NCBI RefSeq assembly: GCF_001644225.1
Contig: NZ_LSTV01000001.1
Span: 1,054,001 to 1,118,000 of the forward strand
DNA from: Microbacterium oleivorans
GTDB taxonomy: Bacteria; Actinomycetota; Actinomycetes; Actinomycetales; Microbacteriaceae
DNA length: 64,000 nt
Direction: 5' to 3'
A program made the position numbers and the translations under genes. Positions 7,259 to 10,957 of this stretch are shown here, one piece after another. The stretch's first letter is position 1. Each line of letters begins with the position of its first letter. The notes under the pieces are model-generated. The model did no database searches and was not told where the DNA came from. It saw nothing but the letters and a program-made list of their open reading frames with translations.

Positions 7259-10123
<2,865 letters not shown>

Positions 10124-10229
10124 GTGTGCTCTCCTTCGTCGGCGGGCGCGGCGTGAGCCGGCCCTCCCATCTTCGCCCCGCCCGGTCCCGGCGGCTAGTG
10201 AGGTCTGCCTTACCGTGACGGGCGAAATT

Positions 10230-10247
10230 TATCTTGATATCAAGATA
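10230..10247. promoter_or_regulatory. Perfect 18-bp palindrome upstream of acnA (candidate MarR-type operator)
   Basis: TATCTTGATATCAAGATA is a perfect inverted repeat with no spacer, AT-rich in a very GC-rich setting, between the LON-domain gene and acnA. Size and symmetry fit operators of MarR-family regulators. In Streptomyces the MarR regulator TamR is known to act at an aconitase gene, so a homologous circuit is a reasonable inference. The regulator itself is not in this window. Confidence 0.65.
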
Positions 10248-10273
10248 CCTCACGGACGCGTCCGACACGTGTG

Positions 10274-10915
10274 TCAGACGTCCTCGTCGTCCGTGTCGGC
10301 GGCATCCGCGATCCGGGCGATGAGGACTGGTTCCTCCTCGAGGCACATCCCGCGCAGCCGTTCGAGCAGATTCGCGACGCTCGTGGAACTCAGCAGGCGG
10401 AACCGGTCGTACTCCCCCAGCGGGGCCATGGCGGCCAGCTGCCACGTCGAGACGACGGGATCGTCGGCCACCTCGGCATCCGGGTCCCACCGCGCTTCGT
10501 CGAGGACCGCAGCCAACGTTGCGACACGACGCACGACGCGCTCTACCTCACGGCGCAGCGGCAGGACGTCCTCGTCCCAGGCGAGCGGCGCGACCGGTGA
10601 CACGTCCGCCACGGGATGCGGGTCGTCCTCACCCCACCTGTCGACGGCGATCCGCTCCCCTCCCACCGCGATCACGAACAGGTCCTCCGCGCCCGCCTCG
10701 ACCCGGACGATGCGCGCCAGGGTTCCGAGCATCGCGCGCTCGTCGCCGCCCCCGGCCTCGAATCCGCGCTCGATCAGGACCACCCCGAACGACGGGTCGT
10801 CGGCATCGAGCAGCCGCCCGATCATCGTGAGGTACCGCGGCTCGAAGACGCGCAGCGCGAGCGGCGTGTGCGGGAGCAGCACGCTTCCCAGCGGGAACAT
10901 CGGCACGGCGTCCAT
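10274..10915 (-). CDS. LON substrate-binding domain protein
   Basis: A 213-residue protein consisting of a stand-alone Lon N-terminal (PUA-like) substrate-binding domain without ATPase or protease domains. The opening VPMFPLGSVLLPHTPLALRVFEPRY is diagnostic of the family; residues ERAMLGTLARIVRVE and the helical C-terminal half follow. It ends in an acidic DTDDEDV tail. The function of such proteins in actinobacteria is not established. The ATG at 10915 is preferred; an in-frame TTG at 10927 adds four residues, and neither has a clear ribosome site. It is the last gene of the dut-DUF3710-DUF3159 run, 42 bases downstream of DUF3159. Confidence 0.88.
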   Translation of the reverse strand: MDAVPMFPLGSVLLPHTPLALRVFEPRYLTMIGRLLDADDPSFGVVLIERGFEAGGGDERAMLGTLARIVRVEAGAEDLFVIAVGGERIAVDRWGEDDPHPVADVSPVAPLAWDEDVLPLRREVERVVRRVATLAAVLDEARWDPDAEVADDPVVSTWQLAAMAPLGEYDRFRLLSSTSVANLLERLRGMCLEEEPVLIARIADAADTDDEDV

Positions 10916-10957
10916 GGGCTCAGTCAATCAGCCCGGCGGCGCCGGTGGGGTGGTTCC

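What the first reader, a model, noticed from the sequence alone, without database searches (positions are those of the whole stretch)
10230..10247. Perfect 18-bp AT-rich palindrome upstream of aconitase
TATCTTGATATCAAGATA has no mismatch and no spacer, in a GC-rich intergenic region about 107 bases before acnA. It fits a MarR/UrtR-type operator. Streptomyces TamR, a MarR regulator, is known to act at an aconitase gene, so a citrate/trans-aconitate-responsive circuit may exist here.
Basis: partly seen in the sequence, partly recalled or inferred. Interest (0 to 1): 0.6.

Follow-up and report, generated by a model that had tools for sequence, protein, structure and literature searches.

The report
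Citrate-type repressor site controlling aconitase
The palindrome is a conserved binding site for a MarR-type regulator, most likely a citrate sensor related to Streptomyces TamR, that appears to control aconitase and two further citric-acid-cycle genes in Microbacterium; it extends a known kind of circuit to a new bacterial group.

Summary
The palindrome TATCTTGATATCAAGATA (10230-10247) is real. Its length alone is near chance (0.93 expected per window), but its conservation is not. It lies 107 bp before acnA and is the genome's only such site within 3 mismatches. 143 of 149 congeners (Microbacterium) carry a match, and 26 of 29 loci inspected lie upstream of acnA. Elsewhere the same 20-mer lies at the start of MarR-family genes (24 of 37 non-acn loci). 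The best-fitting regulator in this genome, P0001, is a UrtR-subfamily MarR resembling MftR, PecS and HucR. It is 56-62% identical to actinobacterial MarRs that carry this operator, at least one divergent from a trans-aconitate methyltransferase gene (the tamR-tam arrangement). P0001 orthologues and the acn site co-occur across Microbacteriaceae, though independent losses are few. The genome's next-best two sites lie upstream of sucC and icd; sites there are conserved (28 of 28 each in a genus sample). Best reading: a TamR-like repressor of acnA, icd and sucC, released by citrate-type ligands. Binding, repression and ligand are inferred. Unlike Streptomyces, tamR is not beside tam, no tam was found, and tamR lacks the site.

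The parts
10230..10247 (.). 18-bp perfect palindrome, proposed operator of the TamR-like MarR P0001
10227..10250 (.). Position of the 24-bp palindrome seen in relatives (ATTTATCTTGATRTCAAGATAAAT); here 10 of 12 pairs remain, the acn-distal flank has changed
10248..10256 (-). Place where relatives carry an extended -10-like element TGnTAnnnT abutting the operator (53 of 62 distinct promoters); the window sequence TCCGTGAGG does not match it
10193..10214 (-). Second conserved leader element GGTAAGGCAGACCTCACTAGCC, candidate DtxR/IdeR-type iron box (naming uncertain)
7259..10123 (-). acnA, aconitate hydratase, the proposed target gene
10274..10927 (-). Upstream neighbour with LON substrate-binding domain; the palindrome lies between its end and acnA. 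Not conserved as neighbour (found in 2 of 30 loci, own and L009)

Best explanation
The palindrome is the operator through which a TamR-like, UrtR-subfamily MarR dimer (P0001; G000:C1:604959-605453, minus strand, outside the window) controls acnA. The same protein is proposed to control icd and sucC through weaker sites, making a small citric-acid-cycle regulon. Without ligand the dimer sits on the operator, which in most relatives abuts the promoter's extended -10 and would cover the start of transcription, so acnA is repressed or damped. When citrate or trans-aconitate builds up (for example when the iron-sulphur cluster of aconitase is damaged or iron is short), the ligand releases the dimer and aconitase and the next enzymes rise. 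Shown by computation: conservation, association with MarR genes, co-occurrence with P0001 orthologues, and the icd and sucC sites. Inferred: binding by P0001, direction (repression), and ligand (by analogy with Streptomyces TamR).
For: (1) Conserved site: 143 of 149 congeners, 138 of 249 family genomes and 58 of 85 genera within 2 mismatches. (2) Exact 20-mer in 80 loci: 43 upstream of acn; of the other 37, 24 have a MarR gene whose start lies by the site (21 within about 115 bp, 3 with the site inside the 5' end of the ORF as called). (3) 20 of those 24 MarRs match P0001 best among this genome's MarRs. (4) Planotetraspora homologue, 62% identical, shares the operator with a divergent tam gene above NCBIfam's cut-off. 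(5) Co-occurrence: site within 2 mismatches in 134 of 216 family genomes with a P0001 orthologue and 4 of 33 without (Fisher p 6e-8). A matrix trained on other genomes finds the acn site in 44 of 44 orthologue-bearing genomes that had looked site-less, against 2 of 26 lacking it. (6) The next-best two sites in this genome lie upstream of sucC and icd; 28 of 28 icd and 28 of 28 sucC promoters in a genus sample score above all shuffles. (7) Other targets in the family: icd of two unrelated types, sucC, sdhCDA. (8) UrtR fold and T/S-S-G-T loop. (9) Extended -10 abutting the operator in 53 of 62 promoters.
Against: P0001's own gene has no site and no tam was found in this genome (an empty answer without positive control). 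The icd and sucC sites here have 5 mismatches to the acn site. Independent losses are few: 5 changes on the acn tree and only 1 independent pair on well-supported branches, so the phylogenetically corrected test is not significant. No other MarR was run as a co-occurrence control. The extended -10 is missing in this very genome. 4 of 24 operator-linked MarRs (L088, L089, L117, L153) resemble other own MarRs more, so other MarR branches can use this word. S. coelicolor TamR itself was not compared.
Confidence: 0.78

Rival explanations
1. Another regulator of the same genome, a different MarR paralogue (such as L040) or a non-MarR protein, binds the palindrome, and P0001 co-occurs by shared ancestry.
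For: The genome holds 21 matches to the Pfam MarR model; 4 of 24 operator-linked MarRs are closer to other own MarRs; few independent losses.
Against: 20 of 24 operator-linked MarRs match P0001 best. Genera g17 and g71 have genomes of normal size (2.1-3.7 Mb) with many MarR-like first-look candidates in g17, yet lack both P0001 orthologue and site. Only one orthologue-grade copy exists here.
Confidence: 0.1
2. P0001 binds the site but activates acnA, or its ligand is not citrate or trans-aconitate (for example urate or another acid).
For: This genome lacks the abutting -10 element, so the promoter geometry is unproven here. UrtR relatives sense urate (passages of PMC12893000), and the ligand cannot be read from sequence.
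Against: In 53 of 62 distinct promoters the operator abuts the -10, as for a repressor. The targets are acn, icd, sucC and sdh, where a citrate-type signal makes sense. TamR represses aconitase and answers to citrate and not to urate (passages of PMC5487221 and PMC6391409).
Confidence: 0.2
3. The palindrome acts as an RNA hairpin in the acnA leader or as a terminator of the upstream gene.
For: The 48-nt transcript folds better than most shuffles (-14.5 kcal/mol, z -2.85, 3 of 200 shuffles as good).
Against: Variants such as TATCTCGACATCAAGATA break the stem on one strand. The site recurs upstream of MarR, icd and sucC genes. The upstream neighbour is not conserved. The conserved -10 abuts it, which puts it at the start of the transcript.
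Confidence: 0.03
4. Chance palindrome without function.
For: About 0.93 palindromes of this length are expected in the window.
Against: Conservation at acnA in the genus and family, and a matching regulator.
Confidence: 0.01

Closest known systems
TamR of Streptomyces coelicolor (MarR family; Huang and Grove 2013; Huang et al. 2015; both recalled, not read)
   Same: MarR/UrtR-type regulator; aconitase gene as target; regulon of citric-acid-cycle genes including isocitrate dehydrogenase (idh, mdh and aceB1 as S. coelicolor targets are recalled); homologues in Planotetraspora and Nocardioides share this operator with a divergent tam-like gene.
   Different: Here the regulator gene lies between tRNA-Gln and another gene, not beside tam; no tam was found; no operator at its own gene; sucC and, in some relatives, sdhCDA carry the site. 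These two are not among the S. coelicolor targets I recall.
UrtR subfamily: MftR, PecS, HucR
   Same: Extra N-terminal helix, T/S-S-G-T loop, best structural matches.
   Different: Targets are central-metabolism genes; response to urate not tested.
AcnR and RipA control of acn in Corynebacterium
   Same: Aconitase promoter under a dedicated regulator and, through RipA/DtxR, under iron (passages of PMC13001254).
   Different: AcnR is TetR-type and encoded beside acn (recalled; DIP1284 beside acn is listed as TetR family in PMC13001254). No MarR gene was found in the 43 acn loci of about 3-8 kb searched.

Membership tests
UrtR subfamily of MarR (for P0001) | MarR winged helix-turn-helix domain | tested here: met
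   Pfam MarR_2 58.5 bits and MarR 31.1 bits, both over cut-off
UrtR subfamily of MarR (for P0001) | Additional N-terminal helix | tested here: met
   Model pLDDT 91.9, helix 7-18 before the core helix 25-50; that this is a UrtR hallmark is recalled
UrtR subfamily of MarR (for P0001) | T/S-S-G-T element in the alpha3-alpha4 loop | tested here: met
   S85-S86-G87-T88 in P0001; S86 and G87 invariant in 15 sequences; element described in passages of PMC12893000
UrtR subfamily of MarR (for P0001) | Residues equivalent to HucR D73, R80, R106 (names recalled) | tested here: met
   D59, R66, R92 fall on them in the ungapped HMMER alignment to 2fbk; D59 and R66 invariant, R92 nearly so
UrtR subfamily of MarR (for P0001) | Solved UrtR structures as nearest relatives | tested here: met
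   Foldseek ranks 1-9 are MftR, PecS and HucR
UrtR subfamily of MarR (for P0001) | Release from DNA by urate | not testable with these tools
   biochemical
TamR | Operator at the aconitase gene | tested here: met
   site at acnA, with P0001 as best candidate regulator; binding itself untested
TamR | Regulator gene divergent from tam | tested here: not met
   P0001 gene stands by tRNA-Gln and no tam match in this genome. Met in the Planotetraspora homologue L085 by NCBIfam and in Nocardioides L083 by eye
TamR | Operator at its own gene (autoregulation) | tested here: not met
   best match in 18 kb around the gene has 7 of 18 mismatches and does not lie upstream of it
TamR | DNA release by citrate and trans-aconitate | not testable with these tools
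   biochemical
TamR | Sequence orthology with S. coelicolor TamR | not tested

The most novel reading that the evidence does not exclude
In Microbacteriaceae a TamR-type sensor has been cut loose from trans-aconitate detoxification (no tam, no autoregulation) and become a stand-alone regulator of the oxidative citric-acid cycle (acnA, icd, sucC, in some lineages sdhCDA), hitting two unrelated isocitrate dehydrogenases through the same operator. At acnA it is paired with a second conserved leader element, so that aconitase is gated by both citrate and iron.
Probability: 0.35. Interest if true: 0.5.

Novelty: new variant of a known kind. Interest (0 to 1): 0.4.

Why it matters
It gives a named candidate regulator, operator and target set for control of the citric-acid cycle in a large group of soil and environmental actinobacteria. 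It also shows how a small ligand-sensing regulon is re-wired: the aconitase link is kept while tam and self-control go. The prediction is sharp (one protein, three promoters, two or three ligands) and cheap to test.

Tried and rejected
Chance palindrome: length alone is near expectation, rejected on conservation. Own-genome search for further perfect copies: none within 3 mismatches; only a degenerate pattern revealed sucC and icd. Site upstream of the regulator's own gene: none. tam in this genome: none, uncontrolled. Corynebacterial AcnR-type arrangement: no MarR gene in the 43 acn loci; TetR genes were not searched for. RNA hairpin: considered and set aside. Full 19-bp DtxR consensus: weak, 11 of 91 leaders within 6 mismatches; the shorter core is the conserved part. 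Phylogenetically corrected co-loss test: not significant. Literature searches by operator sequence and by PDB code gave nothing of use.

Rows left out before counts: 80 genomes were searched for acn and 74 had it. Of these, 70 were scanned. Not fetched were G186, G249, G303 and G355, all lacking the orthologue; the first three are incomplete assemblies with a site within 2 mismatches (G249's is about 110 bp before acn), the fourth has none. 41 of the 82 orthologue-bearing site-less family genomes were given.

Full report
Setting. The window lies in a 2.97-Mb genome. Its genus group is Microbacterium by inference: contigs of unnamed congeners have the same lengths as named Microbacterium contigs, for example G078:C4 (300759) and M. 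aerolatum, G095:C8 (471993) and M. gallinarum, G105:C77 (170712) and M. ginsengisoli. acnA is the minus-strand ORF 7259-10123.

Observation. The palindrome is exact and at the stated place. A spacer-free palindrome of this length is expected about 0.93 times per window, so its length is no evidence. The word itself is unique in the genome within 3 mismatches, and 143 of 149 congeners have it within 2 mismatches. Of 29 genus loci looked at, 26 are upstream of acnA. Of the six congeners without such a match (G035, G051, G055, G059, G136, G146), five have a more diverged site at acn; in G055 no acn was found in an assembly 87% complete.

What binds it. One exact scan of a public collection for the 20-mer TTATCTTGATATCAAGATAA returned 80 loci; 80 is also that tool's usual limit, so the list may be capped. 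43 are upstream of acn, among them Brevibacterium, Marmoricola and a Nanopelagicales assembly as well as Microbacterium. Of the other 37, 24 carry a MarR-type ORF at the site, from many phyla: 21 have the site within about 115 bp of the called start and 3 (L090, L100, L148) inside the called 5' end. Some of the remaining 13 are cut off beside the site (L105, L106, L151, L158). Among this genome's MarRs (21 matches to the Pfam model), 20 of the 24 operator-linked MarRs match one best; four (L088, L089, L117, L153) match others. That one is P0001, 165 aa, at G000:C1:604959-605453 on the minus strand.

P0001. It has the MarR domain, a confident model with an extra N-terminal helix, and MftR-DNA, PecS and HucR as best structural matches. 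It carries S-S-G-T in the loop described as conserved in UrtR proteins (passages of PMC12893000). D59, R66 and R92 align with HucR D73, R80 and R106 (the role of those residues is recalled). Homologues in Planotetraspora and Nocardioides, 56-62% identical, have the operator beside them. In Planotetraspora thailandica the divergent gene is a trans-aconitate 2-methyltransferase (341.6 bits against a cut-off of 320). In Nocardioides the divergent gene looks the same by eye. This is the arrangement after which TamR is named. In the present genome P0001 stands by a tRNA-Gln gene, no tam was found (uncontrolled), and no operator lies upstream of it.

Co-occurrence. In 249 family genomes, 134 of 216 with a P0001 orthologue (E 1e-25 or better) have a site within 2 mismatches, against 4 of 33 without (p 6e-8); the four (G186, G249, G303, G329) are assemblies 85-93% complete. 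A matrix trained on 46 acn sites of other genomes then found the acn site, 35-190 bp from the aligned start, in 44 of 44 orthologue-bearing genomes that had seemed site-less, some of them weak (G248, G178). It found it in 2 of 26 genomes without the orthologue: G329, and G153 with a decayed site. Genera g17 and g71 lack both although their genomes are of normal size. The genomes are not independent: on an acn tree of 66 rows both traits change 5 times, and only 1 independent pair rests on well-supported branches, so a corrected test cannot reach significance. In the genus, 148 of 149 genomes have the orthologue; the exception is 44% complete.

Regulon. A degenerate pattern gives 18 places in this genome within 3 mismatches, against 5 for the reversed control. 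Only three are within 1: acnA, C1:44892 and C1:80542. The latter two lie directly upstream of sucC and of monomeric icd. In 29 congeners sampled, 28 of 28 icd promoters and 28 of 28 sucC promoters found score above all 60 shuffles, two sucC ones weakly (G003, G026). Of 58 other site loci examined, 24 are at monomeric icd, 5 at the unrelated dimeric icd, 6 at sucC, 2 at sdhC, 8 at acn, 3 at PrpD-like genes, 3 at tamR-type genes, 1 at an IclR-type gene and 1 at a glyoxalase-like gene; 3 show only the acetyltransferase gene that neighbours icd elsewhere, and 2 are cut off. One PrpD was tested with NCBIfam and fell below the curated cut-off; the other two were judged by eye. The sites are therefore mainly on citric-acid-cycle genes.

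Mechanism. In 53 of 62 distinct promoters an extended -10-like TGnTAnnnT abuts the operator, and at no other offset is it found more than twice. The operator would then cover the start of transcription, as for a repressor. This window lacks that element, so here the geometry is less sure. Repression released by citrate or trans-aconitate is taken from TamR (passages of PMC5487221 and PMC6391409) and is not shown here.

A second element. The acn leader holds TWAGGnnnnCCT in 70 of 85 distinct leaders, against 0.16 expected; in the window it is at 10201-10212, within 10193-10214. It resembles the core of a DtxR-type iron box, but the full consensus fits poorly in most leaders. [quoted passage not shown] It is absent from the 180-bp icd and sucC stretches examined in this genome.

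Literature. Searches of the held library for TamR with aconitase, citrate or isocitrate dehydrogenase, and for Microbacterium with aconitase and MarR, returned no account of this circuit in Microbacteriaceae (listings, with passages of the papers named above); one search gave none for a six-term combination including succinyl-CoA synthetase. Subscription papers are mostly not held, and the two primary TamR papers were not read.

Verdict. The operator is real and conserved; the regulator is very probably P0001; the circuit works like TamR's, but two features of the TamR arrangement (beside tam, operator at its own gene) were tested and not met here. I therefore call it TamR-like and a new variant of a known kind.

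Noticed in passing
10193-10214, minus strand: Second conserved element in acn leaders (GGTWAGGnnnnCCTYnCTAGCC-like), 70 of 85 distinct leaders against 0.16 expected; candidate iron box.
   Followed up: partly
L332 1501-1518 (G000:C1:44892-44909) and L333 1501-1518 (G000:C1:80542-80559): Degenerate operator sites upstream of sucC and icd, the next-best in the genome.
   Followed up: yes
L322, L323, L056, L330, L331 against L016, L020 and others: The same operator stands before two unrelated types of isocitrate dehydrogenase (dimeric and monomeric) in different genera.
   Followed up: partly
L302 and L306: Operator upstream of sdhC (sdhCDA), divergent from what looks like a mannose-1-phosphate guanylyltransferase gene, in two Microbacterium genomes.
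   Followed up: partly
L084 and L161 (Brevibacterium), L073: Operator upstream of PrpD-like genes (2-methylcitrate dehydratase), suggesting a link to 2-methylcitrate.
   Followed up: no
L085, L100, L106, L120, L123, L126, L140, L152: Two operators in tandem at MarR-type genes or loci, about 26-39 bp apart.
   Followed up: no
L066 1501-1518: Operator upstream of an IclR-family regulator gene in a small-genome relative.
   Followed up: no
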